This document shows, one piece after another, positions 1 to 33,504 of a stretch of 45,766 bases of DNA. Source of the stretch: Bacteroidales bacterium (GTDB taxonomy: Bacteria > Bacteroidota > Bacteroidia > Bacteroidales > WCHB1-69); assembly GCA_017395245.1 (NCBI GenBank), contig JAFPVR010000085.1, positions 1-45,766 of the forward strand, written 5' to 3'. The position numbers and the translations under genes were made by a program. The notes under the pieces are model-generated. The model had not been told where the DNA came from. It worked only from the letters and a program-made list of their open reading frames with translations, and did no database searches. How positions within the stretch are numbered: position 1 is the stretch's first letter; each line of letters starts with the position of its first letter.

Positions 1-56
1 AATAGTGAATAGTGATTAGTGATTAGTGATTAGTGAATAGAGGTGAGTAATGAATA
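1..56. repeat. Heptanucleotide tandem tract (AATAGTG/ATTAGTG)
   Basis: Consecutive 7-bp units: AATAGTG twice, ATTAGTG three times, then degenerate AATAGAG, GTGAGTA and ATGAATA. It lies downstream of nadB on the minus strand, past a second, different heptad tract. The same word family recurs, inverted, at 5755-5799. Confidence 0.85.
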
Positions 57-60
57 GGTA

Positions 61-90
61 TATTCTGCATTCTTCATTTTACATTCTTCA
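61..90 (-). repeat. Heptad tract overlapping the 3' end of nadB
   Basis: Read on the minus strand the units are TGAAGAA, TGTAAAA, TGAAGAA and TGCAGAA. The stop codon of nadB and its last residues (MKNVK) are encoded inside this tract, so the repeat has replaced or extended the natural gene end. Confidence 0.8.
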
Positions 91-1654
91 TTGAATGTGG
101 GGGGTAGTCAAGGGAGTAGTGGAGGCCGCGGCTTTCCTTGCGGGCCATGGCGTGGCGGACGATGAGGTAGCCGATGTTGATGAGGTTGCGGAGCTCGCAG
201 ATTTCGGGGTTGAGGATGGACTTTTTGTAGAGGTCCTCGGTCTCGCGGTAGAGGATTTCGAGGCGGTCGAAGGCGCGCTGTAGACGCAGGTCGGAGCGCA
301 CGATGCCGACGTAGCTGCTCATGATGGTTTGCAACTCCTTGCGCTCCTGGGTGATGAGCACCATCTCCTCGTTGAGGACGGTGCCTTCGCTGTTCCAGTC
401 AGGTACCTCCTGGCAAAATTGGATGCTGGGCAGGTCTTCGACGGCGTGGATGCAGGCGCGGTGCGAGAAAACCAAAGCTTCCAACAACGAGTTGGAAGCC
501 AAGCGGTTGGCACCGTGCAGACCTGTGGAGGCGCACTCGCCGGAGGCGTAGAGGTTGCGGATGGAGGTCGCACCCCACTCGTCGGTTTCGATGCCGCCGC
601 AGGAGTAGTGCTCCACCGGCACCACAGGAATCATCTCCTTGGTGATGTCAATGCCGATGCTCAGGCATTTGGCGTAGATATTGGGGAAGTGCTCGAAAAT
701 CTCCTTTCGGGGAATCGGGGAGGTGTCGAGGAATACATGATCGACACCCTGCTGCTTCATTTCGGAGTCGATGGCGCGGGCCACGATGTCGCGGGGTGCG
801 AGCGAGCCGCGTTTGTCGTATTTTTCCATGAAGGCCACCCCGTTGGCGTCGCGCAGGATGGCGCCGGCACCGCGCATGGCCTCGGTAATGAGGAACGAGG
901 GCGACTCTTTGGGGTTGTAGAGGGAGGTCGGGTGGAACTGGATGAACTCCATGCCGCGCACGGCTCCCTTGGCGCGATAGACCATCGCTACGCCGTCGCC
1001 GGTGGCTACCAGCGGGTTGGTGGTGTGCTCGTACACCATGCCGAGACCGCCGGTGGCCATCATGGTCACTTTCGCGAGGATGGTGTGGATGTTCTTGGAT
1101 TCGGGGTTATAGACGTAAGCCCCGTAGCAGGTGATGTCGGGCGTGCGGCGGTTTACCTCCACGCCGAGGTGGTGCTGGGTGATAATCTCCACCGCCAGCC
1201 GGTCCTCGTAAATTTCGATGTTCGGGTTTTTCCTTGCGGCCATTATCAGCTTCTGCTCAATCTCATAGCCGGTGATGTCCTTGTGGTGGAGGATGCGGTT
1301 CATGGAGTGGCCGCCCTCCTTGCCGAGGGCGAAGCTGCCGTCCTGGTTCTTGTCGAAGTCGACGCCCCATTGCACCAGTTCCATGACGCGTTCGGTGGCT
1401 TCGCGGATGGTCAGCTCCACAATGTGGCGGTCGGAGAGCTCGTCGCCGGCCACCATTGTGTCTTGAATATGCTTTTCGTAAGAGTCAGGCTTGTAGATCA
1501 CCGAGGCGATACCGCCTTGTGCGTAACGGGTGGAACCGTCGTCCATCTTCGCTTTCGTGACCATGCAGACTTTGCCGAAATTGGCGGCTTTCAGGGCGAA
1601 GCAGAGTCCCGCAATGCCCGAGCCGATAACCAGAAAATCAACTTCTTTGCGCAT
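74..1654 (-). CDS. nadB: L-aspartate oxidase (NadB)
   Basis: This FAD enzyme oxidises L-aspartate to iminoaspartate, the first step of de novo NAD synthesis. It is 526 residues, the usual family length. The N-terminus carries the dinucleotide motif GSGIAG. Further along are the family signatures EFIQFHPTSL, PVEHYSCGGI and GECASTGLHGANRLASNS, and near the C-terminus the helical-domain motif RKESRGLHYSLDYP. The start follows a minus-strand TACTTTTG box by about 27 nt. nadA and nadC are not in the window, so the gene appears to stand alone and divergent from the methyltransferase. Its last residues (SMKNVK) fall in a heptad tract and are probably not ancestral. Identification is secure. Confidence 0.97.
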   Translation of the reverse strand: MRKEVDFLVIGSGIAGLCFALKAANFGKVCMVTKAKMDDGSTRYAQGGIASVIYKPDSYEKHIQDTMVAGDELSDRHIVELTIREATERVMELVQWGVDFDKNQDGSFALGKEGGHSMNRILHHKDITGYEIEQKLIMAARKNPNIEIYEDRLAVEIITQHHLGVEVNRRTPDITCYGAYVYNPESKNIHTILAKVTMMATGGLGMVYEHTTNPLVATGDGVAMVYRAKGAVRGMEFIQFHPTSLYNPKESPSFLITEAMRGAGAILRDANGVAFMEKYDKRGSLAPRDIVARAIDSEMKQQGVDHVFLDTSPIPRKEIFEHFPNIYAKCLSIGIDITKEMIPVVPVEHYSCGGIETDEWGATSIRNLYASGECASTGLHGANRLASNSLLEALVFSHRACIHAVEDLPSIQFCQEVPDWNSEGTVLNEEMVLITQERKELQTIMSSYVGIVRSDLRLQRAFDRLEILYRETEDLYKKSILNPEICELRNLINIGYLIVRHAMARKESRGLHYSLDYPPHSMKNVK

Positions 1655-1680
1655 AATGACCCATTCTATAATGACGGGTG

Positions 1681-1688
1681 CAAAAGTA
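1681..1688 (-). promoter_or_regulatory. Promoter -7 box of nadB
   Basis: CAAAAGTA on the plus strand reads TACTTTTG on the minus strand, matching the Bacteroidota consensus TAnnTTTG, about 27 nt before the nadB start. Confidence 0.7.
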
Positions 1689-1715
1689 CAATTTTTTTGT
1701 GATTTGAAAAAAATG

Positions 1716-1723
1716 TACTTTTG
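1716..1723 (+). promoter_or_regulatory. Promoter -7 box of the methyltransferase gene
   Basis: TACTTTTG matches TAnnTTTG, 16 nt before the ATG at 1740. A TTTG at 1696-1699 is a possible -33 element. Both divergent genes use the same box sequence. Confidence 0.7.
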
Positions 1724-1739
1724 CCGCGTTTAAACGACT

Positions 1740-5722: not shown

Positions 5723-5754
5723 CCCGCATCATGCATACTACATTGGCTTTTCTC

Positions 5755-5799
5755 ACTACCCACTAATCACTAATCACTAATCACTGTTCACTAATCACC
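5755..5799 (+). repeat. Heptad tract (ACTAATC)
   Basis: Units are ACTACCC, ACTAATC three times, ACTGTTC and ACTAATC. It lies 33 nt past the stop at 5722, between convergent genes, and is the reverse complement of the tract family at 1-56. Confidence 0.85.
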
Positions 5800-8348: not shown

Positions 8349-9518
8349 ATGTTAGGAAATTTCACATACGAAAACCCCACCCGCCTGCATTTCGGCGAGA
8401 ACAGTCTGGAATTCTTGAAAGAGGAACTAGCCCAATACGGCAAGACCGTCATGCTGTCGTATGGCGGAGGATCCATCAAGCGCACAGGACTTTACGACCA
8501 GGTCGTGGCCATCTTGAAAGAGGTCGGCAAGACCGTCGTGGAGGATCCCGGCGTGATGCCGAACCCGACGGTGGAGAAACTCTACGAAGGTTGCAAGCTC
8601 GCCCGCGAGAACAACGTCGATCTCATCCTCGCGGTGGGCGGCGGATCCGTGTGCGACTACGCCAAGGGCGTGGCCGCCTCCGCATGGCTCGACGGCGACC
8701 CGTGGCAGACCTATTACGTGGAAGGTAAGGATCCTGCCACCGACTTGCGCATCCTGCCCGTCGGCTGCGTGCTGACGATGGTGGGCACCGGTTCCGAGAT
8801 GAACGGCGGCTCCGTCATCTCCAACCACACGCAGAACCTCAAGCTCGGCAAGGTCTTCGACAGCCGTCTGATGCCTAAGTTCACAATCTTGAATCCGAAA
8901 TTGACGTTCACGGTGCCGCAGTACCAGATGGTGGCCGGTATCTTCGACATTATGTCGCACCTTTTGGAGCAGTACTGCAGCAACGAGGACGACAACACCA
9001 GCGATTACCTCAACGAGGGACTTATGCGCTCGCTCATCCATAGCTCGCGCATTGCCGTGAAGAATCCGCAGGACTACGAGGCCCGCAGCAATATCATGTG
9101 GACGGCCACGTGGGCGCTCAACACGCTGCTCAAACAGGGCAAACGTCAGGACTGGATGGTGCACATGATCGGCCATGCCATCGGCGTGGTGACCAATGCC
9201 ACCCACGGCATGACGCTCGCATCCGTCTCCATTCCGTACTACAAATACATCATGCACAGCGGTTTACACCAGTTTGTGCGTTTCGCGAAAAATGTCTGGG
9301 ATGTTCGTCCCGAAGGCAAAACCGACGAGCAGGTTGCTTTGGAGGGCCTCGCCGCGATGGAGGCTTGGATGCGCGAGATTGGCGTGACGATGAAGGCCTC
9401 CGAGTTAGGCGTCACCCCCGACAATATCGATACAATCGCCGATGCGACGGTCCTCGGCGGCGGGTTCATGCAATTGACGCGGGAGGACGTTGTGGAGATT
9501 TTGAAACGGGCACTGTAG
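8349..9518 (+). CDS. Iron-containing alcohol dehydrogenase (YqhD/BDH group)
   Basis: This 389-residue type III alcohol dehydrogenase reduces aldehydes to alcohols, or the reverse, with NAD(P)(H). The nucleotide-binding signature is AVGGGSVCDYAKG (near residues 97-109). Metal-ligand regions are visible as GIFDIMSHLLEQYC, with the downstream histidines in MVHMIGHAIG and NATHGMTLA. Length and N-terminus (FTYENPTRLHFGE) match butanol dehydrogenase/YqhD proteins. It is followed by HdrB- and HdrA-like genes, suggesting that alcohol or aldehyde oxidation-reduction is tied to a disulfide or Fe-S electron module. The stop codon TAG is the second to fourth base of a 28-bp palindrome. Confidence 0.94.
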   Translation: MLGNFTYENPTRLHFGENSLEFLKEELAQYGKTVMLSYGGGSIKRTGLYDQVVAILKEVGKTVVEDPGVMPNPTVEKLYEGCKLARENNVDLILAVGGGSVCDYAKGVAASAWLDGDPWQTYYVEGKDPATDLRILPVGCVLTMVGTGSEMNGGSVISNHTQNLKLGKVFDSRLMPKFTILNPKLTFTVPQYQMVAGIFDIMSHLLEQYCSNEDDNTSDYLNEGLMRSLIHSSRIAVKNPQDYEARSNIMWTATWALNTLLKQGKRQDWMVHMIGHAIGVVTNATHGMTLASVSIPYYKYIMHSGLHQFVRFAKNVWDVRPEGKTDEQVALEGLAAMEAWMREIGVTMKASELGVTPDNIDTIADATVLGGGFMQLTREDVVEILKRAL

Positions 9519-9639
9519 AGACGTTGCGCGCAACGTCTCTACGTGACGAAACGATAACCCCGACCGTAGAGACGGGACATGCCACGTCTACAACAGAACG
9601 GACCCCTAACCGTGGAGACGCAATGCATTGCGTCTCTAC
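9515..9639. repeat. Three 28-bp-type palindromes (GTAGAGACG arms)
   Basis: Copies are at 9515-9542 (perfect palindrome), 9566-9591 (26 bp, imperfect) and 9612-9639. The arms are GTAGAGACG and CGTCTCTAC around a 10-base core: TTGCGCGCAA in the first and CAATGCATTG in the third, each self-complementary. The first copy supplies the dehydrogenase stop codon and is identical to the one inside the T9SS gene at 40473-40500. Confidence 0.9.
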
Positions 9640-9650
9640 AATATGCCAAC

Positions 9651-9692
9651 AATTACCAATTACAGATCACAGATCACCGTTCACTGATCACT
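9651..9692 (+). repeat. Heptad tract (GATCACA type)
   Basis: Units are AATTACC, AATTACA, GATCACA, GATCACC, GTTCACT and GATCACT, ending 6 nt before the HdrB-like start. The same family, in the same plus-strand orientation, lies at 24241-24303. Confidence 0.85.
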
Positions 9693-10810: not shown

Positions 10811-10866
10811 AACTTTGACCTTTGACCTTTGACTTGAAACTTGAAACCTGAAACTTGAAACTTTAA
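10811..10866 (+). repeat. Heptad tract (ACCTTTG / ACTTGAA)
   Basis: Eight contiguous 7-bp units: AACTTTG, ACCTTTG twice, ACTTGAA twice, ACCTGAA, ACTTGAA and ACTTTAA. It ends 2 nt before the HdrA-like ATG and so forms its whole immediate leader. Confidence 0.85.
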
Positions 10867-10868: not shown

Positions 10869-11861
10869 ATGACGATAGCAATCATAGGCGCCGGCCCCGC
10901 CGGCATAGAGGCCGCCTCCGTGCTGGCCAAGCAACACCATGTCACCCTCTTCGAGAAGGAGGAGAGACCGCTGTGCAATATCCGTGACAAGGCCTTCCTG
11001 TTCCCGGACTTCAGCTCCGCCGACGAGCTGGCCGACAAGCTGGAAGCCAAGCTTACGGACGAGAACATCACTTTCAAGACCGCCACGCCGGTCGTCTCTA
11101 TGCAGCGCACGGGCGAGCGGTGGACGCTGACCACTGCCGACGGCAGCACTGCCACCTTTGATGCGGTGCTGTTAGCTACTGGCTACAAGGTCTTCGATGC
11201 ACACCAAAAGGAGGAACTCGGCTACGGCATCTACAAGGGCGTAATCACCTCCTTGGAGATGGAGAAGATGATCAAGGAGAACCGGATTCGCAATAATATG
11301 AACGAGGTTCCGAAGCAGATTGTCTTCCTGCAGTGCGTGGGCTCTCGCGACGAGAAGTCGGGCAACCACTACTGCTCGAAAGTCTGCTGCGTGACTGCTG
11401 TGAAACAGGCCATCGAAATCAAGAAGCAGCATCCTGAGACGGATGTCTATGTCTTCTACATGGATCTGCGTATGTGGGGGCAGGGCTTCGAGGAGATGTA
11501 CCGCGAGGCGCAGGAGAAGTACGGTGTCAACTTCGTGCGCGGCAGAATCTCGGAAGCCGCTTCCACGTTCGACAACCGTGTGCAGATCAAGGCCGAGGAT
11601 ACCCTCATGGGCAATCCGATGACGATGAATGCCGATCTCTTGGTGCTGATGGTGGGCATGTGCGCCTCCGAAGGCACCGCCACCTTGTCGAAATGCGCCG
11701 GCATTGACGGCCTCTACCGTTTCGCGCAGAGTCGCTCGCCACACACCGAGGACAACCTCACCGCCCAGCCGAACCTCTTCCTCGCCGGTTCTTGCAAACG
11801 TCCGATGTGCATCGAGGATACGATTCAGGACGCGAGAGCCGCCGCGCTGGAGATAATTTAA
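10869..11861 (+). CDS. Short HdrA-like FAD oxidoreductase
   Basis: This 330-residue flavoprotein is related to the FAD core of heterodisulfide reductase subunit A (or QmoA). The FAD motif IIGAGPAGIEA is at residues 4-14 and VLLATGY near 99-105. The HdrA signature is FLQCVGSRD followed by HYCSKVCC (near 153-176), and the closing FAD-contact region is NLFLAGSCKRPMCIEDTIQDA. It is about half the length of classical HdrA and lacks the N-terminal and C-terminal ferredoxin domains, so electrons probably pass to a partner. It likely works with the HdrB-like protein and possibly the dehydrogenase. The stop codon TAA lies in a heptad tract. Confidence 0.88.
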   Translation: MTIAIIGAGPAGIEAASVLAKQHHVTLFEKEERPLCNIRDKAFLFPDFSSADELADKLEAKLTDENITFKTATPVVSMQRTGERWTLTTADGSTATFDAVLLATGYKVFDAHQKEELGYGIYKGVITSLEMEKMIKENRIRNNMNEVPKQIVFLQCVGSRDEKSGNHYCSKVCCVTAVKQAIEIKKQHPETDVYVFYMDLRMWGQGFEEMYREAQEKYGVNFVRGRISEAASTFDNRVQIKAEDTLMGNPMTMNADLLVLMVGMCASEGTATLSKCAGIDGLYRFAQSRSPHTEDNLTAQPNLFLAGSCKRPMCIEDTIQDARAAALEII

Positions 11862-11931
11862 GACTTGAGACTTAGGACTTGAGACTTAGGACGTATCGAT
11901 ATTTCAAAAAGTCTTAGGTCTTACGTCTTAA
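11859..11931. repeat. Inverted heptad arms (TAAGACT ... GTCTTAG)
   Basis: The left arm, 11859-11893, reads TAAGACT, TGAGACT, TAGGACT, TGAGACT, TAGGACG. The right arm, 11911-11931, reads GTCTTAG, GTCTTAC, GTCTTAA, its reverse complement. The left arm begins with the HdrA-like stop codon. The arms could fold into a hairpin and may act as a terminator. Confidence 0.85.
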
Positions 11932-11950
11932 GCCTAAAAATACGATTGAT

Positions 11951-13177: not shown

Positions 13178-14401
<1,224 letters not shown>

Positions 14402-14405: not shown

Positions 14406-14433
14406 GGTTATAGGTTATAGGTTATAGGTTATT
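14406..14433 (+). repeat. Heptad tract (GGTTATA)
   Basis: GGTTATA three times, then GGTTATT, beginning 5 nt after the activator's stop. The start-side counterpart occurs upstream of the glycosyltransferase at 25801-25828. Confidence 0.85.
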
Positions 14434-14472
14434 GAAGCTGATGAATCAGAACACCCCCATATTAAAAAAAGA

Positions 14473-14628
14473 CTTCCTTAAGCTGCCTCGAAGAGGCAAA
14501 ACGCGCGAAGCGCAATTAACCCCACACAAGCGACGAAGGAGCGCAGTGTGGGGCGTGTCACACAAGCGACGAAGGAGCGCAGTGTGGGGCGTGTCACACA
14601 AGGTGCCAGTCGCAGTGTGGGGCGTGAC
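14473..14628 (+). repeat. GNA triple-hairpin element A, copy 1, with 36-bp triplication
   Basis: Hairpin 1 is GCCTC-GAA-GAGGC (14485-14497). Hairpin 2 is GCGC-GAA-GCGC (14503-14513). Hairpin 3 has CCCCACAC (14520-14527) pairing with GTGTGGGG (14546-14553). The third module is repeated three times with a 36-bp period (from about 14524 to 14628), keeping frame with lptE and encoding HKRRRSAVWGVS twice and then a variant. Confidence 0.85.
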
Positions 14629-14629
14629 A

Positions 14630-15109
14630 ATGCTCGCTCTCCTGCTCCTTACCGGTTGCCGCATGTCCGTTTCGTTGACGGGCGGCACCGTCGATGCGCG
14701 GGCGAAGACCGTGGCCATCACCACGTTCCCGAACAACGCCACGCTCATCAACCCGACGTTGAGCCAGAGTTTCACGACGGCACTGAAGGACAAAATCCAA
14801 GGACAGACCCCGCTGACCATTGTGGATCGGGACGGCGACTATACCATCGAGGGTGAGATTACGGGATATACAGTGAATCCGTCGGCTATCCAAGGCAACG
14901 ACACGCCTGCTCAGAATCGCCTCACCATCACGGTGCGGGTGCGATTCTTCAACAAGTTTAACGAGGATCAGAACTTCGACCAGACGTTCTCGCGCTACGC
15001 CGACTATAACAGTTCGATGAACCTCAGCAGTGTGGAGGCCACCCTCGTTTCCGAGATCAACGACGCGCTGACTGACGATATTTTCAACAAGGCGTTTGTG
15101 AACTGGTAG
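14630..15109 (+). CDS. lptE: LptE-like lipopolysaccharide-assembly lipoprotein
   Basis: This protein of about 160 residues should plug the LptD barrel and help insert LPS in the outer membrane. A lipobox LLTGC near the N-terminus gives an acylated cysteine, and the remainder (TVAITTFPNN, LTIVDRDGDYTIEGEI, LTITVRVRFFN) matches the Bacteroidota LptE family. The chosen ATG leaves a very short, uncharged signal peptide. The open frame runs 66 codons further upstream through the repeat element, and translation from there, or from an in-frame GTG, would add basic residues and more hydrophobic core. The true start is therefore uncertain. The TAG stop is part of a 28-bp palindrome. It follows the sigma-54 activator. 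Confidence 0.85.
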   Translation: MLALLLLTGCRMSVSLTGGTVDARAKTVAITTFPNNATLINPTLSQSFTTALKDKIQGQTPLTIVDRDGDYTIEGEITGYTVNPSAIQGNDTPAQNRLTITVRVRFFNKFNEDQNFDQTFSRYADYNSSMNLSSVEATLVSEINDALTDDIFNKAFVNW

Positions 15110-16326: not shown

Positions 16327-16343
16327 AGTGCTTTTATTTTAAG

Positions 16344-17252: not shown

Positions 17253-17286
17253 ATTCGTTGGTATTGTTTATTACTTCGTGTTAATT

Positions 17287-18190: not shown

Positions 18191-18223
18191 TTTTCAAACA
18201 TATATATGACTTTTCCGGCCTCA

Positions 18224-18247
18224 ACTACTAACTGCTAACTACTAACT
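18224..18247 (-). repeat. Heptad tract overlapping the hypA stop (TTAGTAG sense)
   Basis: On the plus strand: ACTACTA, ACTGCTA, ACTACTA, ACTCCCG. In gene sense it encodes the HypA tail LVVSS and its TAG stop. Confidence 0.8.
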
Positions 18248-18575: not shown

Positions 18576-18607
18576 AACCTTATATTCACTTTACCTTCCT
18601 TGCCACG

Positions 18608-18683: not shown

Positions 18684-18725
18684 TATTCATAATTCATAAT
18701 TCATAATTCATCATTCATAATTATT
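18684..18725 (-). repeat. Heptad tract (AATTCAT) at the flavoprotein stop
   Basis: TATTCAT, AATTCAT three times, CATTCAT, AATTATT. The TAA stop of the 978-residue oxidoreductase (18721-18723) lies in the last unit. Confidence 0.85.
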
Positions 18726-24211: not shown

Positions 24212-24239
24212 GTAGAGACGTGCCACGGCGCGTCTCTAC
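24212..24239. repeat. 28-bp palindrome after the Ig-like lipoprotein gene
   Basis: Arms GTAGAGACG and CGTCTCTAC; core TGCCACGGCG is imperfectly self-complementary. It could double as a terminator between the convergent genes. Confidence 0.88.
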
Positions 24240-24240
24240 A

Positions 24241-24303
24241 AATCACAAATCACAAATTACAGATCACAGATCACTGTTCACAGATCACTGTTCACAGATC
24301 ACA
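24241..24303. repeat. Nine-unit heptad tract (GATCACA / GTTCACA)
   Basis: AATCACA twice, AATTACA, GATCACA, GATCACT, GTTCACA, GATCACT, GTTCACA, GATCACA: exactly 63 bp. It starts one base after the palindrome and ends 5 nt before the stop of the PorT-like gene. Confidence 0.92.
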
Positions 24304-24308
24304 GACTT

Positions 24309-24962
24309 CTAAAATTGGTAACAATAACTGAATGTCATTGCCGAATTGAATTGTTTGTTGACCACGCGACCGTAGACCCATGTGGGGATGCGCACGGGCA
24401 CGATGGAGTTCTCGTAGCGGAAGTTCACGCTGTGATGGTCGGCGATCATGAGGGAGATGCCGGCCTGTGCGGAGAACTCGTACCAGCGGAACGGCGGTCG
24501 TCCGACAATCGGCCCATTGGCTTCGCGCTCGCGGCTGAAGACATTTACCCCGAACACGGGGCCGACTTCCAAATCGAAATTGAAACTTTTTCCCCACAAC
24601 TGCCATTTTCCCGCCGTCCAGACGAGCATCAGCGGCATTTCCACATAGCCTAATGTGAGCGAGTAGAAATTGTCGGCGATCACATTTTTAGGCGTGTAGG
24701 AGTGGCTGCCTTTCATCACGAAATCCAGCTCTAACTGCAGTTTCAGCCGTCCCGACGGAACGATAGAGTGGTTGACGAACCCGCCTACCGCCGCTCCTAT
24801 TTTGTGGAATCCCGACAGGTCGTCGCCTGAAATCTGCGTGGCGGTGAACCCCACCCGCACCCCGCCGTAAAAACGGGAATTGTCGGTTTTCTGCGGCTCT
24901 TGCGCGAAACCGGCGGTGAATAGGGCGATTAGAATGGATATGATGATGATTTTTTTTGTCAT
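24309..24962 (-). CDS. PorT-like outer-membrane beta-barrel protein
   Basis: This 217-residue protein has a signal peptide (KKIIIISILIALFTAGFAQ), then alternating strands typical of the small PorT/OMP_b-brl barrels (FYGGVRVGFTATQ, YVEMPLMLVWTAG, FDLEVGPVFGVNVF, and a C-terminal aromatic MTFSYCYQF). I chose the ATG at 24962. An ATG 12 codons upstream lies in the palindrome 24979-25006 and would add MVHRVSTQTINN before the signal peptide. The role, whether structural or T9SS-related, is not proven. Confidence 0.85.
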   Translation of the reverse strand: MTKKIIIISILIALFTAGFAQEPQKTDNSRFYGGVRVGFTATQISGDDLSGFHKIGAAVGGFVNHSIVPSGRLKLQLELDFVMKGSHSYTPKNVIADNFYSLTLGYVEMPLMLVWTAGKWQLWGKSFNFDLEVGPVFGVNVFSREREANGPIVGRPPFRWYEFSAQAGISLMIADHHSVNFRYENSIVPVRIPTWVYGRVVNKQFNSAMTFSYCYQF

Positions 24963-24978
24963 ATTGTTTATTGTTTGT

Positions 24979-25006
24979 GTAGAGACGCGGTGCACCACGT
25001 CTCTAC
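24979..25006. repeat. 28-bp palindrome between glycosyltransferase and PorT-like genes
   Basis: Arms GTAGAGACG and CGTCTCTAC; core CGGTGCACCA. It begins 4 nt after the glycosyltransferase stop (gene sense). Confidence 0.88.
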
Positions 25007-25010: not shown

Positions 25011-25793
25011 TTACCACACGGAATCCCAATCCTCCGCCTCCCTCACGGATTTATCCCGTTGAAACTCCAACAGTTTCGCGTACTTGAGGAAGCTGTTGTG
25101 GGCGACGGCACGGGAGAGGATGTAGCCGTCGAGGCCACCGAGGATGCCGCCACGGAAGAAGTAATTGCTGATGAAAGCGGCCAATCCGTGGAAGAACGGC
25201 GAAAAAGCGTTGGCCTTCTTCCCCTGCAGGTATAGAATTTTGGCACCGCGAGAGCTGTAGTTGCGCTCGGGCTTCGAGAAAAGACTGTCGTAGTTCTTGT
25301 AGCGGTAGTGGATGATGTCGGCTTTGAGCCGTTTCGTGTTCTTTTCCGGCACGAAGGCGTGCTGCTTGCGGTCGAGGAAGCGCAACTTGTCCTTGCGGTA
25401 GAGCCGCACGAGCCAGTCGGGGTACCAGTTGCAGGCCTTCACCCACCGCTCCCCGATGTAGTTGCGTCGGCGGATGGCGAAACCGTAGTACGGAGTGTGC
25501 TCCAAATCTAACTTTTGGATGGCCGCCACGAGTTCATCGGTGAGCCGCTCATCGGCATCTAAGCTGAGCACCCAGTCGTTCTTGGCGTGCTCTAACGGCA
25601 GGTTCTTCTGCGGTCCGTCGCCAATGTAAGGGTGTATGAAAACACGCGCCCCAGCCTTCTCCGCCAATTCGACGGTGTTGTCGGTGCTGCACGAGTCGGT
25701 GACGATAACCTCATCGCACACGCGCTGCAGCGAGCGGATGCAGGCCTCGATGTTTTTGGATTCGTTCAGGGTGGTGATGATGCCGGTGATCAT
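25011..25793 (-). CDS. Family 2 glycosyltransferase (WaaE/KdtX-like)
   Basis: This 260-residue inverting glycosyltransferase has a GT-A fold: TGIITTLNESKNIE at the N-terminus, VIVTDSCSTDNT, and the metal-binding LSLDADERLTDE (DxD motif near residues 78-80). The conserved WYPDWLVRLYRKDKLRF segment is typical of the WaaE/KdtX group that adds sugars to lipopolysaccharide core. A hydrophobic helix near the C-terminus (GLAAFISNYFF) may hold it at the inner membrane. The role is probably envelope glycan synthesis; the donor and acceptor are unknown. Confidence 0.93.
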   Translation of the reverse strand: MITGIITTLNESKNIEACIRSLQRVCDEVIVTDSCSTDNTVELAEKAGARVFIHPYIGDGPQKNLPLEHAKNDWVLSLDADERLTDELVAAIQKLDLEHTPYYGFAIRRRNYIGERWVKACNWYPDWLVRLYRKDKLRFLDRKQHAFVPEKNTKRLKADIIHYRYKNYDSLFSKPERNYSSRGAKILYLQGKKANAFSPFFHGLAAFISNYFFRGGILGGLDGYILSRAVAHNSFLKYAKLLEFQRDKSVREAEDWDSVW

Positions 25794-25800
25794 TGTTAAA

Positions 25801-25854
25801 GGTTATAGGTTATTGGTTATGGGTTATTGAAGTCAGTTAGTAGTTAGTAGTTGT
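25801..25854 (-). repeat. Two adjacent heptad tracts upstream of the glycosyltransferase
   Basis: At 25801-25828: GGTTATA, GGTTATT, GGTTATG, GGTTATT. At 25834-25854: CAGTTAG, TAGTTAG, TAGTTGT. In gene sense both read as reverse complements of the stop-side versions at 14406 and 18224/33456. Confidence 0.85.
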
Positions 25855-26967: not shown

Positions 26968-26993
26968 TCATAATTCAGCATTCATAATTAATC
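26959..26993 (-). repeat. Heptad tract spanning murA stop and WG-repeat gene start
   Basis: ATTCAGC, ATTCATA, ATTCAGC, ATTCATA, ATTAATC. It provides both the murA stop (26988-26990) and the start codon of the next gene (26965-26967), so it is the whole intergenic space. Confidence 0.88.
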
Positions 26994-28298
26994 AACCCGT
27001 TCGATTTTCGCACCTAGATTGTTCAGCCGCTCCACGATGTGCTCATATCCCCTGTCGATTTGCTCCACGTTCTGGATCACGCTCTTGCCTTCGGCGCTCA
27101 GGGCCGCGATGAGCAGGGCGATACCGGCGCGGATGTCGGGGGAGGACATCTTGGTGGCTCGCAGGCGCTTCTCGCGGGCGAGACCGACGACGATGGCGCG
27201 ATGCGGGTCGCAGAGCACGATCTGCGCACCCATCGACTGCAACATATCGACGAAAAAGAGACGGCTTTCGAACATCTTCTGGTGGATCAGCACGCTGCCT
27301 TTGGCCTGGATGGCCGTCACGAGGGCGATGCTGATAAGGTCGGGGGTGAATCCCGGCCACGGGGCATCGGCGATGGTCAGGATGGAGGCCTCGCGCGGGT
27401 CGGAGTAGATGCTGTAGGGTTCCTGCCCGTGGACGATGAGATCGTCGCCCTTCCGCTCGAACTGCACCCCCATCTTGCCGAAAGTGTAGGGAATCAGTCC
27501 CAGATGGTCGCAGGCGCAATCCTTGATGGTCAGCTCCGACTGGGTCATCGCAGCCATCCCGATGAAGCTGCCCACCTCGATCATGTCGGGGAAGATGCGG
27601 TGTGTGCATCCGTGCAATTTCTTGACCCCCTGAATCTTCAGTAAATTGGAACCGATACCGGAAATCTTTGCGCCCATGTTGTTGAGCATGGTGCAAAGCT
27701 GGTACAGATAGGGTTCGCAGGCGGCGTTGAAGATGGTGGTCTCGCCCTCCGCCAGCACAGCCGCCATTACGATGTTGGCGGTACCCGTCACAGAAGGTTC
27801 GTTCAGTTGCATATAGCAACCCTTCAACTGCTTGGCTTCCAACTCGAAGAACTTCTCATCCGGCGAGGTGGAAATTACCGCCCCGAGCTTCTCCAAACCC
27901 TCGAAGTGGGTGGTCAGCGGGCGCCGTCCGATCTGGTCGCCGCCGGGCTTGCCGGAGTAGGCCTTGCCGTAGCGGCCCAACAGCGGACCGAGCACCATAA
28001 TGGAGGCGCGGATTTTGGTCGATAGCCGCGAGAACTCGTCGGTGCGCAGCTGCTCGAAATCGACATCCTCCGCCTGGAACGTGAACGTATGCTCGTCCAC
28101 CTCCGTGATCTTCACCCCCATCAGCGCCAAAATCTCGCGATAGCGCTGCGTGTCGAGGATGTTCGGGATGTTGGAAATGGTGACCGGCTCGTCGGTCAGC
28201 AGCACGGCCGAGAGCACCTGCAGGGCCTCGTTCTTCGCGCCCTGCGGGGTAATCTCGCCGCGCAGGCGGTGACCGCCTTCTATGATGAATTCTGCCAT
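26988..28298 (-). CDS. murA: UDP-N-acetylglucosamine 1-carboxyvinyltransferase (MurA) with Asp in place of the fosfomycin-target Cys
   Basis: This 436-residue enzyme transfers enolpyruvate from PEP to UDP-GlcNAc, the first committed step of peptidoglycan synthesis. Hallmarks are TPQGAKNEALQVL near the N-terminus (the catalytic Lys of KNEAL), RASIMVLGPLLGR, the PEP loop KPGGDQIGRRPLTTHF and EVGSFIGMAAMT. In the loop the residue equal to E. coli Cys115 is Asp121 (codon 27936-27938), the substitution that blocks fosfomycin attachment. The length is usual for the family. The TAA stop lies in a heptad tract. Confidence 0.96.
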   Translation of the reverse strand: MAEFIIEGGHRLRGEITPQGAKNEALQVLSAVLLTDEPVTISNIPNILDTQRYREILALMGVKITEVDEHTFTFQAEDVDFEQLRTDEFSRLSTKIRASIMVLGPLLGRYGKAYSGKPGGDQIGRRPLTTHFEGLEKLGAVISTSPDEKFFELEAKQLKGCYMQLNEPSVTGTANIVMAAVLAEGETTIFNAACEPYLYQLCTMLNNMGAKISGIGSNLLKIQGVKKLHGCTHRIFPDMIEVGSFIGMAAMTQSELTIKDCACDHLGLIPYTFGKMGVQFERKGDDLIVHGQEPYSIYSDPREASILTIADAPWPGFTPDLISIALVTAIQAKGSVLIHQKMFESRLFFVDMLQSMGAQIVLCDPHRAIVVGLAREKRLRATKMSSPDIRAGIALLIAALSAEGKSVIQNVEQIDRGYEHIVERLNNLGAKIERVD

Positions 28299-28310: not shown

Positions 28311-28422
28311 TGAGACGTAAGACGTGAGACGTGAGACGTGAGACGTGAGACGTGAGACGTAAGACGTGAGACGTGAGACGTGAGACGTGAGACGTGAGAC
28401 GTGAGACGTGAGACGTGAGACT
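28311..28422. repeat. Sixteen-unit heptad tract (TGAGACG) before murA
   Basis: Exactly 112 bp: TGAGACG with two TAAGACG variants and a final TGAGACT. It is the longest tract in the window and lies in the leader of murA. Confidence 0.95.
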
Positions 28423-28445: not shown

Positions 28446-28508
28446 AAGTCCTAAGTCTCAAGTCTCAAGTCTCAAGTCTTAAGTCTTAAGTCTTAAGTCT
28501 TAAGTCTT
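28446..28508. repeat. Nine-unit heptad tract (AAGTCTT/AAGTCTC) at the PFK stop
   Basis: AAGTCCT, AAGTCTC three times, AAGTCTT five times. It is inverted relative to the 28311-28422 arm, with 23 nt between. The PFK stop codon (28507-28509) overlaps its end. Confidence 0.93.
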
Positions 28509-29739
28509 ATTCCGGAATCACAATCGGGAAATTCTGCGTGAACTCCATGCGGTAAGGTGCACCGATGATGTTGGTCAGGAAATCGGTGTACTGGTCGGTG
28601 AAGCAGAACTTGTTGGCGTCGTAGTAGGCAGCGGGCAGCGGGAAGTTGCCGATGTTGCCCATCTCGATGGCGTCGGTGTGGAATTCTTCCAACTCGTCGT
28701 AAGGAACGATGTCGCGGAGCACGGGCATCTTGCCGTAGTCCTCGCGGAGCAGGAGGTCAACCACCTTGTCGGCCAGGGTGGAGGTCAGACGACGGTCATA
28801 TTCGTAGCATTTGCCGGAACGCGGGATGTAGCCGGAGATCTGGCCGCGGGCTTCGATGCCGAGACGCTTGTTGATTTCAGAAGCGATGACGCCGCTCACG
28901 CCGCCGAAGCGCGGGTGACCATATTCGTCGAGGTCGGAGCTGGCATACACCATGCCGAGTTCCTGCTTCTCGTCGTCCCACCAGCGAACACCCTCGGAAA
29001 CCGCGATGATGAGGCTGTGTTTCGGGGAACGCATATACATCTCCTTCACGGATTCGAAGAAGAACTCCTTGCGCTCCTTGGTCATCTCGACCTCGGGAAC
29101 CAATGCCATCTGGGCACCGCCGAAGGAGGCCGTACCGGTGAGCCAGCCCGCGTCGCGGCCCATCACTTCGAGGACCATGATACGCTGGTGCGACTCGTTG
29201 GTGGTGTGCAGCTTGGCCGTCAGTTTCTTGATGGCCATGGCGCCGGACGGGAAACCGGGGCACAACACGGTCTCATGCTGCTGGCCGTTGTAGTGGTGGT
29301 ACGTGCGGGTGCGCAGGTCGTTGTCGATGGTTTTCGGGAAACCGATGACGGGGATGCCGTAGGTCTCGTACATCTTCTTGGCCGCACCGTTGGTGTCATC
29401 GCCGCCGATGGTCACGAGCACGTCGATTTTGTAGCGTTCGATGTTGCGGAGAATCTGTTGGGAGCGGTCTTCGGGGCTTTTCTTGCTCGGGAAGGGGTTG
29501 GTACGGCTGGAGAGCAGCGCGGTGCCGCCGTAGAGGCCGTTGTAGGGGATATTGGTGAGGTCAACGATGTCGCCGTCGCCGAGGAGGCCTTTCCAGCCGC
29601 GCAGCACGCCATAGACGCGGAAGCCGAGCATGGAGGCGCGGTTGCGCACCGCCTCGATGCTGGAGTTGATGGCCGGAGTGTCGCCGCCGCCGGAAAGAAT
29701 CGCTAACGTTTTGCCGTTGAAGAGTTTGTCTTTTCTCAT
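28507..29739 (-). CDS. 6-phosphofructokinase, PPi-dependent type
   Basis: This 410-residue enzyme phosphorylates fructose 6-phosphate. The N-terminal loop is ILSGGGDTPAIN. The two residues that separate phosphoryl donors are both of the pyrophosphate type: GGDD at 112-115 (ATP enzymes have GGDG) and PKTIDND at 135-141 (ATP enzymes have PGTIDND). The MGRDAGWL substrate loop is intact. This makes a reversible, PPi-linked glycolytic step the best prediction. The promoter box is at 29784-29791. The stop TAA falls in a heptad tract. Confidence 0.93.
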   Translation of the reverse strand: MRKDKLFNGKTLAILSGGGDTPAINSSIEAVRNRASMLGFRVYGVLRGWKGLLGDGDIVDLTNIPYNGLYGGTALLSSRTNPFPSKKSPEDRSQQILRNIERYKIDVLVTIGGDDTNGAAKKMYETYGIPVIGFPKTIDNDLRTRTYHHYNGQQHETVLCPGFPSGAMAIKKLTAKLHTTNESHQRIMVLEVMGRDAGWLTGTASFGGAQMALVPEVEMTKERKEFFFESVKEMYMRSPKHSLIIAVSEGVRWWDDEKQELGMVYASSDLDEYGHPRFGGVSGVIASEINKRLGIEARGQISGYIPRSGKCYEYDRRLTSTLADKVVDLLLREDYGKMPVLRDIVPYDELEEFHTDAIEMGNIGNFPLPAAYYDANKFCFTDQYTDFLTNIIGAPYRMEFTQNFPIVIPE

Positions 29740-31181: not shown

Positions 31182-31218
31182 AAAGGATTAGTTTTCGTTT
31201 TCGACGCCACCTTGCTCT

Positions 31219-31267
31219 AAGTCTCAAGTCCCAAGTCTCAAGTCTCAAGTCTTAAGTCTCAAGTCTA
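31219..31267 (-). repeat. Seven-unit heptad tract at the stop of the 31265 gene
   Basis: AAGTCTC, AAGTCCC, AAGTCTC twice, AAGTCTT, AAGTCTC, AAGTCTA. In gene sense the first unit holds the TAG stop (31265-31267). Confidence 0.92.
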
Positions 31268-31960
31268 ATCCACCCCCAGTAGTTTCATCGCATCGGTGCG
31301 GTGCGTGGAGTCGGTGCGGACGAGGAATTCTTCTTCGGCCATCTCTGAAAGGATGGATTCCAGCATTTCTTCCACGATATAGTCCTGAATGTCGAAGTTC
31401 AGCGGCACGGGGGTGTATTGCATGTAACGCTGGATCATCTCGTTCCAAACCTCGTTCACACGGAAAATGGGCATACGCACGGAGACCGGCGACTTGAATG
31501 CGCCTTTCAGGTAGCGGTACTCGTACAGTTCGAAATAGCGGGTGATGGCGTCGTATTCGCCCTTGACCAGCGCGTCGTGATCGGTGATGGGAATCGAGTC
31601 GACGGCGGTGTGGAGCGCGGTGCCGACCTGTGAACCGCAGCTTTCGGCCAGACGGTTGGTGCGCAGGATCAGCGAATCGATGAGGTTGCCGTAGCCATGG
31701 TTGGTGAGCGTGTCGAAAAGCGAGCTCTGTAAGGGGGCATAGTCGATGCGGTAAGTCTCGTTAGCGTAGGAGTAGAAACCGTCCGGGACGCAGAGGTGTT
31801 TCACGGCGGTGTCGGCGCAGGCATCCATGCACGCCCGGATGGCGTTTTCTTTCTGCGCGTTGGTGTACAACTGTTCGACGTATGTGCCGCTTTCGTCCTT
31901 GCAGGAGAAGAACGTCAACGCGGCGAATATGGCTATAATGGTGACAGTCAGCTTTTTCAT
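31265..31960 (-). CDS. Hypothetical lipoprotein
   Basis: This 231-residue protein has an N-terminal lipoprotein signal (KKLTVTIIAIFAALTFFSC), the lipid going on Cys20. The mature protein is alpha-helical and acidic, without a domain I recognise (for example RACMDACADTAVKHLC and EEMLESILSEMAEEEFL). The ATG at 31960 is preferred over one at 31987, which lies within 5 nt of the -7 box. It diverges from the biotin ligase gene; the two promoters touch. Confidence 0.8.
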   Translation of the reverse strand: MKKLTVTIIAIFAALTFFSCKDESGTYVEQLYTNAQKENAIRACMDACADTAVKHLCVPDGFYSYANETYRIDYAPLQSSLFDTLTNHGYGNLIDSLILRTNRLAESCGSQVGTALHTAVDSIPITDHDALVKGEYDAITRYFELYEYRYLKGAFKSPVSVRMPIFRVNEVWNEMIQRYMQYTPVPLNFDIQDYIVEEMLESILSEMAEEEFLVRTDSTHRTDAMKLLGVD

Positions 31961-31991
31961 ATCGTATTTTTCAATTTTCAAATTCAAGCCG

Positions 31992-32008
31992 CAAAAATAC
32001 TATTTTTG
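31992..32008. promoter_or_regulatory. Back-to-back divergent promoters
   Basis: CAAAAATA (31992-31999, minus-strand TATTTTTG) and TATTTTTG (32001-32008, plus strand) are mirror images one base apart. They drive the 31265-31960 lipoprotein gene and the biotin ligase, so the two should compete for polymerase. The plus-strand box ends 4 nt before the biotin ligase ATG, giving a nearly leaderless transcript. Confidence 0.7.
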
Positions 32009-32012
32009 CCGA

Positions 32013-32768
32013 ATGATTCGGAAACAATTTTTAGCAGAGACAAGTTCCACGAACAGTTGGCTGATGACGCTGGCGCGAAGGATGCGGGCGTCAGGCGACG
32101 CGCTGCCCGATTTGTATGCCGTGTACACCGACTTCCAAAACGCCGGGCGCGGGGCGGGCACGAATAAATGGCATAGCTCGCGGGGATTGAACATCCTCAC
32201 CAGCATCTACTTTGAGACGGGGTTAGCCGCCGCCGACCAGTTCGTCTTCAACCTCTGGTTCGCGACCTCCACTCGCCGCTTTCTCGCCAAGTATGTGCCT
32301 GAAGTCCTCATCAAGTGGCCCAACGATCTGTACGTGTGTGACCGCAAGCTCGCCGGCGACCTCACCGAGCATTCCGTTTCCGGAAGCCGCCTCGATTTCA
32401 CTGTCGCGGGCATCGGCATCAACGTCAACGAGGAGGTTTTCCCGTCGGAAATCCCGAACCCCACCTCGCTGTTCCTCGAAACCGGTCGCAAATACGATGT
32501 CGGAACGCTGATGGACGAGTATCTTGCCGTCTTGCGCGAACGCCGTCCGCTGTTGTCCACCGAACACGAGGCCGCCCTTCGCGACGACTACCTTTCGCAC
32601 CTCTACCGCCGCAACGAAATGCATCCGTATCTGGTTAACGGGCAGCAAATTGACGGCATTATCCGCGATATCGACCGCTTCGGGCGGTTAGTGCTGGAAC
32701 TCCCCGACGGAACACGGGAGGCATACGGCTTCAAGGAAATTGCCTATTGCTTGAATGCTGAATGCTGA
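32013..32768 (+). CDS. birA: Biotin--protein ligase (BirA-type, no HTH)
   Basis: This 251-residue enzyme attaches biotin to carboxyl-carrier proteins through biotinyl-AMP. The adenylate loop AGRGAGTNKWHS corresponds to the usual GRGRxGRxW. The binding strand KWPNDLYVCDRKLAG is typical, and IGINVN follows. No N-terminal helix-turn-helix is present, so it is a catalytic, not repressor, type. An upstream in-frame ATG (31809) is rejected because the promoter box lies inside that extension. The C-terminal tail LNAEC and the TGA stop are made by TGAATGC heptads. Confidence 0.93.
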   Translation: MIRKQFLAETSSTNSWLMTLARRMRASGDALPDLYAVYTDFQNAGRGAGTNKWHSSRGLNILTSIYFETGLAAADQFVFNLWFATSTRRFLAKYVPEVLIKWPNDLYVCDRKLAGDLTEHSVSGSRLDFTVAGIGINVNEEVFPSEIPNPTSLFLETGRKYDVGTLMDEYLAVLRERRPLLSTEHEAALRDDYLSHLYRRNEMHPYLVNGQQIDGIIRDIDRFGRLVLELPDGTREAYGFKEIAYCLNAEC

Positions 32769-32844
32769 ATGTTGAATGCTGAATGTTGAATGCTGAATAA
32801 AAATATCGAAAAAAATATTCATAATTCAGCATTCAGCATTCATA
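32752..32844. repeat. Inverted heptad arms (TGAATGC ... ATTCAGC)
   Basis: The left arm, 32752-32800, is TGAATGC/TGAATGT units and overlaps the biotin ligase stop. The right arm, 32817-32844, is ATTCATA, ATTCAGC twice, ATTCATA, its reverse complement, and ends 6 nt before the next promoter. Confidence 0.9.
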
Positions 32845-32850
32845 ATTTAC

Positions 32851-32858
32851 TATATTCG
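32851..32858 (+). promoter_or_regulatory. Promoter -7 box of the YqiA-like gene
   Basis: TATATTCG, a near-consensus box 22 nt before the ATG at 32881. Confidence 0.55.
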
Positions 32859-32880
32859 CGGCCTGAAAAAAACAATCGTT

Positions 32881-33459
32881 ATGGCAAAGAAAATCCTCTA
32901 TATCCACGGTTTCAACTCTGCGGGCGGCGGGCACAAGGCCCAGGAACTGCAGAAAATGTTCCCCGACTGGCAGGTGCTGTCGCCCACGTTCGACTACAAA
33001 GACCCCGCCGGCGTGCAGAAGAAGCTCGACTCGCTCGTGCGCACGCAGCGTGTGAACGCCGTCATGGGCACCTCCCTCGGCGGCTTCTTCGCCATCTACT
33101 GCGCCAAGAAGCACAAGCTCCCCGCCATGGTCATCAACCCCACCATCCGGCCTTCGGAGACACTGGCCAAGCACCTCGGCAAGCAGAAGAACTACGTCAC
33201 GAAGGAGGAGTACCAGTTCACCGCCAGTGACCTCGCCAAGTTCGCCGACTTCGAGGGCAAGGTCTTCGACAAGCTGCCCTGCGACGACACGCTCCTCCAC
33301 TTCGCCCTCTCCACCGACGACGAGCTCCTCGGCGACCACCATTACCTCGAACAGAAGTTTCCCAACTGTCAGGATTTCAATTATTTCGACCAGCAGGGAC
33401 ACCGATTCGCGGGGGTGAAGATATTGAAGCCGATTATTGAGAGGACGATGGGGCGTTAG
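32881..33459 (+). CDS. YqiA/UPF0227-like esterase
   Basis: This 192-residue small alpha/beta hydrolase has the UPF0227 opening ILYIHGFNSAGGGHKAQEL, nucleophile elbow GTSLGG (near Ser65), VINPTIRPSE after it, and the catalytic histidine in the C-terminal DQQGHRF. YqiA of E. coli is a short-chain acyl esterase of unclear physiological role. Strong GC bias in third codon positions compared with neighbours suggests good expression. The TAG stop opens a seven-unit heptad tract. Confidence 0.88.
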   Translation: MAKKILYIHGFNSAGGGHKAQELQKMFPDWQVLSPTFDYKDPAGVQKKLDSLVRTQRVNAVMGTSLGGFFAIYCAKKHKLPAMVINPTIRPSETLAKHLGKQKNYVTKEEYQFTASDLAKFADFEGKVFDKLPCDDTLLHFALSTDDELLGDHHYLEQKFPNCQDFNYFDQQGHRFAGVKILKPIIERTMGR

Positions 33460-33504
33460 CAGTTAGTAGTTAGCAGTTAGTAGTTAGTAGTTAGTAGTTA
33501 GTAG
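33456..33504 (+). repeat. Seven-unit heptad tract (TTAGTAG)
   Basis: TTAGCAG, TTAGTAG, TTAGCAG, TTAGTAG four times. The TAG stop (33457-33459) of the YqiA-like gene lies in the first unit. Confidence 0.93.

What the first reader, a model, noticed from the sequence alone, without database searches (positions are those of the whole stretch)
1..33504. A genome-wide-looking system of heptanucleotide tandem tracts with many unrelated words but one fixed period
About 25 intergenic tracts (for example 1-56, 9651-9692, 10811-10866, 14406-14433, 18684-18725, 24241-24303, 28311-28422, 31219-31267, 33456-33504) use at least a dozen different words: ATTAGTG, GATCACA, ACTTGAA, GGTTATA, AATTCAT, TGAGACG, AAGTCTT, TTAGTAG, TGAATGC, TTGGCTG, TGTACAT and others. 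Nearly all keep exactly 7 bp, or 14. Ordinary replication slippage should give mixed unit lengths. A constant length with a changing word suggests a process that measures 7 nt, such as a templated polymerase, a recombinase footprint or selection on phase. Heptanucleotide STRR repeats are known in heterocystous cyanobacteria; I know of no counterpart described for Bacteroidota.
Basis: partly seen in the sequence, partly recalled or inferred. Interest (0 to 1): 0.9.

Follow-up and report, generated by a model that had tools for sequence, protein, structure and literature searches.

The report
Outward-facing heptamer repeats at gene ends
The gaps between genes of this probable rumen bacterium, and of several unrelated bacteria, fill up with tandem 7-letter repeats whose word changes from species to species but whose length and direction relative to the neighbouring gene tend to stay the same, which points to an unexplained common process of DNA growth.

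Summary
In 444,766 bp of the host genome 64 of 99 arrays with period 1-30 have period 7; in 18 congeners 215 of 337. Of 354 tracts 313 are intergenic. The claim that Bacteroidota have no described counterpart is wrong: MacGregor 2015 reports heptamer repeats in five Bacteroidetes.

New here: (1) the vocabulary is restricted (105 of 1172 words) and species-specific: TTAGYAG 352 against GACTTRR 4 pattern hits in G019, 38 against 381 in the host. (2) Orthologous spacers carry different words in sister species. (3) Tracts abut or overlap the upstream stop codon. (4) Close to gene ends the G-richer strand reads out of the gene, 116:26 at 3' ends and 49:15 at 5' ends; stop codons, G-quadruplexes or replication strand do not explain it. 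The polarity recurs with other words in a cyanobacterium, an acidobacterium and a planctomycete, not in two candidate-phylum genomes with few tracts. Rehm 2015 reported this geometry for G4-forming words.

Best reading: lineage-specific heptanucleotide repeats that grow by 7-nt slippage-type steps from gene boundaries into spacers and turn over fast. The enzyme and the reason for 7 remain unknown.

The parts
1..40 (.). heptamer tract, word AATAGTG/ATTAGTG, at the contig end
62..92 (.). short heptamer tract, word ATTCTTC
5754..5798 (.). tract CACTAAT x6.4 in a convergent spacer, 31 nt from a stop; orientation opposite to the rule
9650..9692 (.). tract ATTACAG/ATCACAG/TTCACTG, about 5 units; the relative G016 has about 2 units at the orthologous place (read by eye)
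10813..10866 (.). CTTTGAC x3 followed by ACTTGAA x4.6 just before the start at 10869
11858..11895 (+). tract TTAAGAC/TTAGGAC starting at the stop codon of the gene 10869-11861; first arm of an inverted pair
11911..11938 (-). second, inverted arm of the pair, 12 nt before the gene at 11951
14406..14432 (+). GGTTATA x3.9, 4 nt after the stop of 13178-14401; G012 has a TTAGCAG tract in its place, G016 none. In the counts it was scored as 5' because my gene caller took the ORF 14432-15109
18223..18247 (.). tract AACTACT/AACTGCT
18685..18722 (-). AATTATG x5.4 overlapping the stop of 18721-21657(-); G016 has fewer units of the same word
24238..24305 (-). TCTGTGA/TGTGAAC x9.7, 3 nt from the stop of 24309-24998(-); G016 keeps about 2 units (by eye), G012 and G019 other words
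25795..25827 (+). GTTATAG x4.7 next to the start of 25011-25793(-)
25835..25852 (.). AGTTAGT x2.6, second tract of the same spacer
28311..28421 (+). TGAGACG x15.6, 14 nt from the murA start (26988-28298,-); first arm of an inverted pair
28446..28509 (-). TAAGACT x9.1 in register with the TAA stop of the phosphofructokinase-family gene 28507-29739(-); second arm
31219..31266 (-). AGACTTG x6.9 overlapping the stop of 31265-31987(-)
32752..32798 (+). TGAATGC x6.7 at the 3' end of the ORF 31809-32768(+), whose stop lies in the tract where G016 has its own; first arm of an inverted pair. Scored in the counts against another ORF (32223-32648,-)
32817..32842 (-). ATTCAGC/ATTCATA, second, inverted arm
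33455..33506 (+). TTAGTAG x7.4 overlapping the stop of 32881-33459; G016 has 2.7 units of the same word
35050..35079 (.). TGTACAT x4.3 inside the ORF 34866-40067(-)
40562..40590 (.). TGTACAT x4.1 inside the ORF 40375-45597(-)

Best explanation
The tracts are lineage-specific heptanucleotide simple sequence repeats that build and rebuild the spacers of this Bacteroidales genus. Shown: period 7; a restricted, species-specific vocabulary; changed unit numbers and complete replacement of the word between sister species; a start at or across the upstream stop codon in about half of the tracts that face one; and a polarity in which the G-richer strand reads out of the gene close to both 3' and 5' ends, sometimes with a second, inverted tract facing it. 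Inferred: new units are added in 7-nt steps by a slippage-type polymerase reaction at 3' ends that point from a gene into the spacer (during repair or restart within the spacer), words spread within a lineage by copying of existing tracts, and selection removes what enters a gene or its leader, so that tracts end up pressed against the stop codon and the leader. Units of 7 would largely escape mismatch repair, which is present. Transcribed inverted pairs can fold into strong hairpins as a by-product. No regulatory function was shown.
For: Period. 313 tracts intergenic, 30 inside genes, 11 at stretch ends, of 354; coding fraction 0.84. 105 words of 1172 possible, random draws of like composition give 250 or more in 300 draws; same-species same-word pairs 309, shuffled mean 126, largest of 1000 shuffles 176; TTAGYAG x3: 0 to 352 hits per genome, reversed control 0 in all 40; GACTTRR x3: host 381, G012 0, G019 4, reversed control 0-12 per genome. 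Turnover: of 97 paired spacers with five relatives (112 pairs with 13 relatives in all), 6 have tracts with a shared word, 11 with different words, 24 a tract in one genome only, 56 none; against G016, whose phosphofructokinase-family gene is 96% identical in DNA, 12 of 27 spacers are under 0.55 identical, 7 at least 0.7 (9 with a side under 25 nt set aside). Stop register: 149 of 306 3'-facing tracts start -25 to +6 nt from the end of the stop; the stop recurs one unit on in 25 of 85, against 2-17 at the other six phases. Polarity: 116:26 and 49:15 within 10 nt (sign test p 9e-15 and 2e-5, orthologous copies not removed; at 3' ends the majority in 17 of 19 species); 62:13 for words with stops on both strands, 22:6 for words without an outward stop; 27 of 313 units hold GGG or CCC; background 3' skew 0.02. 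Pairs in one spacer: inverted better 33, direct 13, tie 18, of 64. Other phyla, 3' ends within 40 nt: Moorena 13:2, Acidobacteriota 14:1 and 2:0, Planctomycetota 6:0, Elusimicrobia 3:1. MutS1 above cut-off in 37 of 40 congeners.
Against: No gradient of unit decay from gene to spacer, as directional growth might leave (first unit 0.852, last 0.854 over 51 tracts at 3' ends). Small duplications outside tracts show no sharp 7. Polarity is reversed in Moranbacteria (3' 0:3, 5' 1:2) and even in Doudnabacteria (1:1, 1:1), and beyond 40 nt there is no clear sign (Moorena 5' 7:12, Acidobacteriota 5' 6:1). In the bait-picked loci outside Bacteroidota, with cruder gene calls, 3' ends give 8:4 and 5' ends 5:13 within 10 nt. 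Tracts more than 10 nt from a stop but nearest to it run mostly opposite (8:23), which I read as second arms. Part of the 5' polarity in the genus is background leader composition (0.10-0.18). Gene ends are my own uncurated calls; at least two window tracts (14406, 32752) were scored against a doubtful ORF. No enzyme was identified, and copying of words between sites was inferred, not seen.
Confidence: 0.45

Rival explanations
1. Ordinary replication slippage with a 7-nt polymerase footprint (the proposal credited to Mrazek 2007), neutral, with no relation to gene ends except that selection removes tracts elsewhere.
For: Period 7 in genomes of many phyla; unit numbers differ in place; mismatch repair gene present.
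Against: Does not predict polarity relative to both gene ends, nor that one genome reuses few words at many unrelated sites.
Confidence: 0.25
2. The unit is an inverted-repeat element (G-rich arm, core, C-rich arm), mobile or copied as a block, like a foldback or REP-type element; single tracts are half-elements.
For: Adjacent tracts match better inverted (33 against 13 direct); hairpin z -6.1 for one host spacer; tracts stand beside palindromic repeats that turn over too; Y1/REP-type transposase family in 36 of 40 congeners.
Against: Only 64 adjacent pairs among 313 intergenic tracts, 18 of them undecided, 16 with at least 6 of 7 inverted matches; the transposase is also present in the tract-poor species G014.
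Confidence: 0.15
3. Selected RNA-level devices: all-frame stop arrays after genes and unstructured A/C-rich leaders before genes.
For: 91% of intergenic words hold a stop on some strand, 73% for random words of like composition; stop in register; leaders lean the same way without tracts; GACTTRR units are mostly TGA/TAA/TAG, TGG 14 of 106.
Against: TTAGCAG holds a stop on both strands yet lies one way 17:0 at 3' ends; words change or vanish between sister species beside the same genes; outside the genus the 5' background skew is opposite to the tracts.
Confidence: 0.1
4. Assembly or binning artefact.
For: The genome is a draft with 3.25% contamination and two full-length MutS1 matches.
Against: Same property in 18 other genomes of the genus and in unrelated genomes; reversed control of TTAGYAG 0 in 40 genomes.
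Confidence: 0.01

Closest known systems
Heptanucleotide long simple sequence repeats of prokaryotes (Mrazek et al. 2007; paper not held, known from MacGregor 2015 and Rehm 2015)
   Same: Period 7 dominates; scattered over phyla.
   Different: Here resolved into species-specific vocabularies with word turnover at orthologous sites and a polarity relative to gene ends.
GGGAATC / GGGGA(C/T)T repeats of Xanthomonas and Nostoc (Rehm et al. 2015, PMC4692102; found passages and sections 13 and 16 read)
   Same: Heptamers; G-rich strand near the ORF on the coding strand after stops (overlapping them) and on the non-coding strand before starts; inverted pairs.
   Different: Those are G-quadruplex-forming words; here over 100 words, 27 of 313 units with GGG or CCC. 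Between their two species most repeats stay between the same genes, with length and sequence variation; here words are often replaced.
TAACTGA direct repeats of Beggiatoaceae, Cyanobacteria and five Bacteroidetes (MacGregor 2015, PMC4679880; abstract, found passages, sections 3 and 10 read)
   Same: Intergenic heptamers holding stop trinucleotides, near gene ends, indels mostly in 7-nt steps between related strains.
   Different: The word TAACTGA is absent from 354 tracts here; MacGregor stresses one word and start codons, here many words and chiefly stop codons.
STRR repeats of heterocystous cyanobacteria (word recalled; three heptanucleotides in Calothrix are mentioned by Rehm 2015)
   Same: Several heptamer words in one genome.
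   Different: The recalled word CCCCAGT is not among the 105 words.

Membership tests
Heptanucleotide long simple sequence repeats | Tandem copies of a 7-nt unit longer than expected by chance | tested here: met
Heptanucleotide long simple sequence repeats | Copy number changes by whole units between related genomes | tested here: met
   same word with different copy number in orthologous spacers, e.g. 33455-33506: 7.4 against 2.7 in G016; between species only, and spacer lengths also differ by other small indels
GGGAATC-type G-quadruplex repeats | Unit with a run of three or more G | tested here: not met
   27 of 313 units hold GGG or CCC; the words GGGAATC, GGGGATT and GGGGACT are absent from 354 tracts
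GGGAATC-type G-quadruplex repeats | G-rich strand reads out of the neighbouring gene | tested here: met
TAACTGA repeats | The word TAACTGA | tested here: not met
   0 of 354 tracts
Phase-variation (contingency) repeats | Repeat switches a surface or similar gene by frame or promoter spacing | tested here: inconclusive
   30 of 354 tracts lie inside called genes; some window tracts flank housekeeping genes such as murA and a phosphofructokinase-family gene; no expression data
Mobile repeat elements (REP, MITE, foldback) | Copies share flanking sequence beyond the repeat, or an empty site with target duplication is seen | tested here: inconclusive
   some spacers lack the tract in a sister species, but neighbouring sequence is replaced too
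Templated (telomerase-like) repeats | An RNA template and a reverse transcriptase tied to the word | not tested
   no search made

The most novel reading that the evidence does not exclude
Many bacterial phyla share an unrecognised activity that extends DNA 3' ends pointing out of genes by 7-nt units, G-rich strand leading as in telomeres, each lineage with its own word or words; spacers are the fossils of this activity.
Probability: 0.1. Interest if true: 0.9.

Novelty: new variant of a known kind. Interest (0 to 1): 0.6.

Why it matters
A rule that holds for unrelated words in several phyla (7-nt step, G-rich strand leaving the gene, at times an inverted partner facing it) cannot come from the sequence of one word, and the G-quadruplex reading given to the published case does not cover it. 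It makes the old question of why heptanucleotides dominate bacterial simple repeats testable: score polarity and word turnover in closed genomes and look for a gene whose loss stops it. It also warns that many spacers in such a lineage are replaced within a genus, so their sequence is a poor guide to conserved regulation.

Tried and rejected
Shared vocabulary across phyla: I first thought that unrelated phyla use the same words. Rejected.

Stop codons as the cause of polarity: words with stops on both strands keep it 62:13, words without an outward stop 22:6. Rejected as sole cause. G-quadruplexes: too few G-runs. Replication-strand or transcription skew: would give opposite outward signs at 5' and 3' ends; the observed sign is the same. 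REP transposase as driver: present in 36 of 40 congeners, the tract-poor G014 too. Loss of mismatch repair: MutS1 in 37 of 40 above cut-off. Directional growth seen as a decay gradient: none. The first run of the small-duplication count had a script error that gave zeros; one search is the corrected run. The first attempt to align the phosphofructokinase-murA spacers misread loci that were not turned to one strand; one search is the better comparison.
Full report
Observation. The host is a draft genome of 3.78 Mb in 129 contigs, the window being contig 72. Named metagenome contigs with 72-94% DNA identity over hundreds to thousands of bases (Tb.RUG.140, RUG182, RUG13189, Reindeer_1_mag_206) place it among uncultured Bacteroidales; that they come from the rumen I infer from their isolate names. 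In 444,766 bp of host DNA 64 of 99 arrays with period 1-30 have period 7, none period 5 or 8; a Markov copy has none of period 7. In 1,430,003 bp of 18 congeners it is 215 of 337, with 30 of period 8 and 8 of period 6. Tract density runs from 1.2 to 38 per 100 kb between species, on samples of 11 to 445 kb.

Vocabulary. 354 tracts in 19 species use 105 of 1172 possible words; random words of the same composition would give about 273, at least 250 in 300 draws. Word use is structured by species (309 same-species same-word pairs, shuffled mean 126, largest 176). Whole-genome counts make this plain: TTAGYAG x3 gives 352 hits in G019, 281 in G050, 186 in G012, 38 in the host, 0 in 16 of 40 genomes, with 0 for the reversed pattern in all 40. 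GACTTRR x3 gives 381 in the host, 118 in G007, 0 in G012, 4 in G019; its reversed pattern gives 12 in the host and is nonzero in 10 of 40. These are overlapping hits, several per tract. Outside the genus the first word is no commoner than its reversed control, and it is absent from 24 genomes of other lineages picked for another heptamer. Words are thus amplified within lineages.

Turnover. The spacer between the phosphofructokinase-family gene and murA shows it best. The host has TGAGACG x15.6 and TAAGACT x9.1, G006 shorter tracts of much the same words, G016, G007 and G009 GTGATTA-type units, G012 GACGTGT-like units, G005 a weak AAAGTTC tract, G002 and G020 palindromes, and in G013 and G019 the genes overlap. 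Over 97 paired spacers with five relatives 6 have tracts sharing a word, 11 have different words, 24 have a tract on one side only and 56 none (the other eight relatives gave 15 more pairs, not in this count). Against G016 (96% DNA identity in the phosphofructokinase-family gene) 7 of 27 spacers are at least 0.7 identical, 8 between 0.55 and 0.7, and 12 under 0.55; 9 with a side under 25 nt were set aside. Where the word is kept, unit number differs: 33455-33506 has 7.4 units, G016 2.7; at 24238-24305 G016 keeps about two units of the host's ten (by eye). One ORF end near 32752 shows the tract taking over the stop: G016 ends in TAG where the host runs on into the tract to a TGA.

Place. 313 tracts are intergenic, 30 inside called genes and 11 at stretch ends (own gene calls from a codon model, not curated). 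Of 306 tracts facing a gene's 3' end 149 begin between 25 nt before and 6 nt after the end of the stop codon. In 85 gene ends chosen by a strong tract at +3 to +16, the match to the next unit is 0.52-0.64 at the stop codon, 0.72-0.79 in the three bases after it, and about 0.27 from 10 to 22 nt inside the gene; the stop recurs in register one unit on in 25 of 85, against 10, 8, 12, 17, 2 and 11 at the other phases. Words hold a stop on some strand in 91% of intergenic tracts, 73% for random words of like composition and 51% for other spacer 7-mers.

Polarity. Read each tract on the strand that leaves the nearer gene. Within 10 nt of a 3' end G exceeds C in 116 and falls short in 26 (of 144); within 10 nt of a 5' end 49 and 15 (of 66); 10-40 nt from a 5' end 30 and 5. 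At 3' ends the majority holds in 17 of 19 species; G021 (1:1) and G022 (1:2) are the exceptions. TTAGCAG lies one way 17:0 and TTAGTAG 10:1 at 3' ends; ATTGGTT reads outward 4:0 at 3' ends and 10:0 at 5' ends. Same-word tracts agree in outward direction in 667 of 934 pairs, in top-strand direction in 492 of 934. Tracts more than 10 nt from a stop, yet nearer to it than to the other gene, run mostly the other way (8:23). Two tracts in one spacer match better inverted in 33 of 64, directly in 13, undecided in 18; at least 6 of 7 bases agree inverted in 16, directly in 3. The host's murA spacer folds as RNA with z -6.1. Spacers without tracts have no such skew at 3' ends (0.02) and a weaker one at 5' ends (0.10-0.18). 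Stop codons, G-runs, replication strand and transcription do not account for it (and reasoning).

Generality. In 80 loci picked by one heptamer (the listed part), arrays elsewhere in the same stretch are again mostly of period 7: 51 of 83 outside Bacteroidota, 23 of 34 in Bacteroidota after removing 19 loci that I took for congeners (some of the rest may be congeners too). In stretches not chosen for repeats, from genomes known to carry one such tract, with their own gene models, the commonest words differ, and at 3' ends within 40 nt the outward strand is G-rich in 13:2 (Moorena), 14:1 and 2:0 (two Acidobacteriota), 6:0 (Planctomycetota) and 3:1 (Elusimicrobia); Moranbacteria 0:3 and Doudnabacteria 1:1 do not follow. 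The eight genomes together give 39:8, with one tie, at 3' ends and 13:5, with one tie, at 5' ends; beyond 40 nt there is no clear sign. One of the eight (Bacteroidia G064) had no tract; G056 had one tract without a scored placement and was left out; G068 yielded only 2.3 kb and two G061 pieces were under 330 bases, none of these scored. Against this, the bait-picked loci with cruder gene calls gave, within 10 nt, 8:4 at 3' ends and 5:13 at 5' ends outside Bacteroidota.

Literature. Searches. Rehm 2015 (PMC4692102; found passages and sections 13 and 16 read) states for GGGAATC and GGGGAYT that repeats lie nearer the ORF on their 5' side irrespective of its orientation, overlap stop codons and can form inverted pairs, and treats them as G-quadruplex sequences while finding no function. 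MacGregor 2015 (PMC4679880; abstract, found passages, sections 3 and 10 read) gives TAACTGA repeats in Cyanobacteria, Beggiatoaceae and five Bacteroidetes. Both cite Mrazek 2007 for the abundance of heptanucleotides and the 7-nt polymerase footprint; that paper was not held. In those searches I found no paper on multi-word heptamer vocabularies, on word replacement at orthologous spacers, or on this polarity for words that cannot form quadruplexes; most papers were seen as listings only.

Mechanism. Shown: period, vocabulary, turnover, place, polarity. Inferred: 7-nt slippage-type extension at 3' ends leaving genes, spread of words within lineages, and trimming by selection. The polarity is the same for both kinds of gene end, and where two tracts share a spacer they tend to face each other, which fits growth of both DNA ends into a spacer; an inverted-repeat element inserted as a block would look alike. 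A mismatch repair gene is present, which fits the lack of 1-4 nt units (established knowledge: mismatch repair acts poorly on larger loops) but not the preference for 7. No decay gradient was seen, and small residual duplications do not peak sharply at 7, so the step size may belong to tract growth rather than to the first duplication.

Noticed in passing
window 24212-24239, about 9515-9640, 24979-25006 and other spacers: Short palindromes of the type GTAGAGACG...CGTCTCTAC, REP-like, that also differ between sister species.
   Followed up: partly
window about 14476-14620, 18600-18680, 40096-40210, 45625-45766: Composite palindromic modules (CCCCACACTGCGG..CTTGTGTGGGG, TTAATTGCGCTTCGCGCG, CTGCTCAAGGAA) recurring in spacers, some next to heptamer tracts.
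   Followed up: partly
window 34702-34749 (spacer 34665-34865): A symmetric array TTCACTACTTAGTGGACCACCGATTAGTGGACCACTAAGTAGTGAA in a spacer 99% identical between host and G016, the best conserved of 27 compared: a likely regulatory site amid rapid turnover.
   Followed up: no
window 34866-40067 and 40375-45597: Two neighbouring ORFs of 1733 and 1740 aa, each with a TGTACAT tract within about 220 nt of the 3' end of the frame.
   Followed up: no
window 16830-16928: A perfect 14-bp array TAATCAACACGCAG x7.1 beside small ORFs and related 14-16 bp arrays (16334-16392, 17265-17334); the orthologous G016 spacer lacks it.
   Followed up: no
relatives G012, G002, G006 and others: Period-8 arrays (30 of 337 arrays in 18 relatives, none of 99 in the host).
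   Followed up: partly
G000 contigs C60 and C120: Two full-length MutS1 matches in the host assembly, perhaps a second strain or contamination.
   Followed up: no
G013 and G019, junction of the phosphofructokinase-family gene and murA: Genes overlap where the other species compared have 24-224 bp spacers.
   Followed up: no
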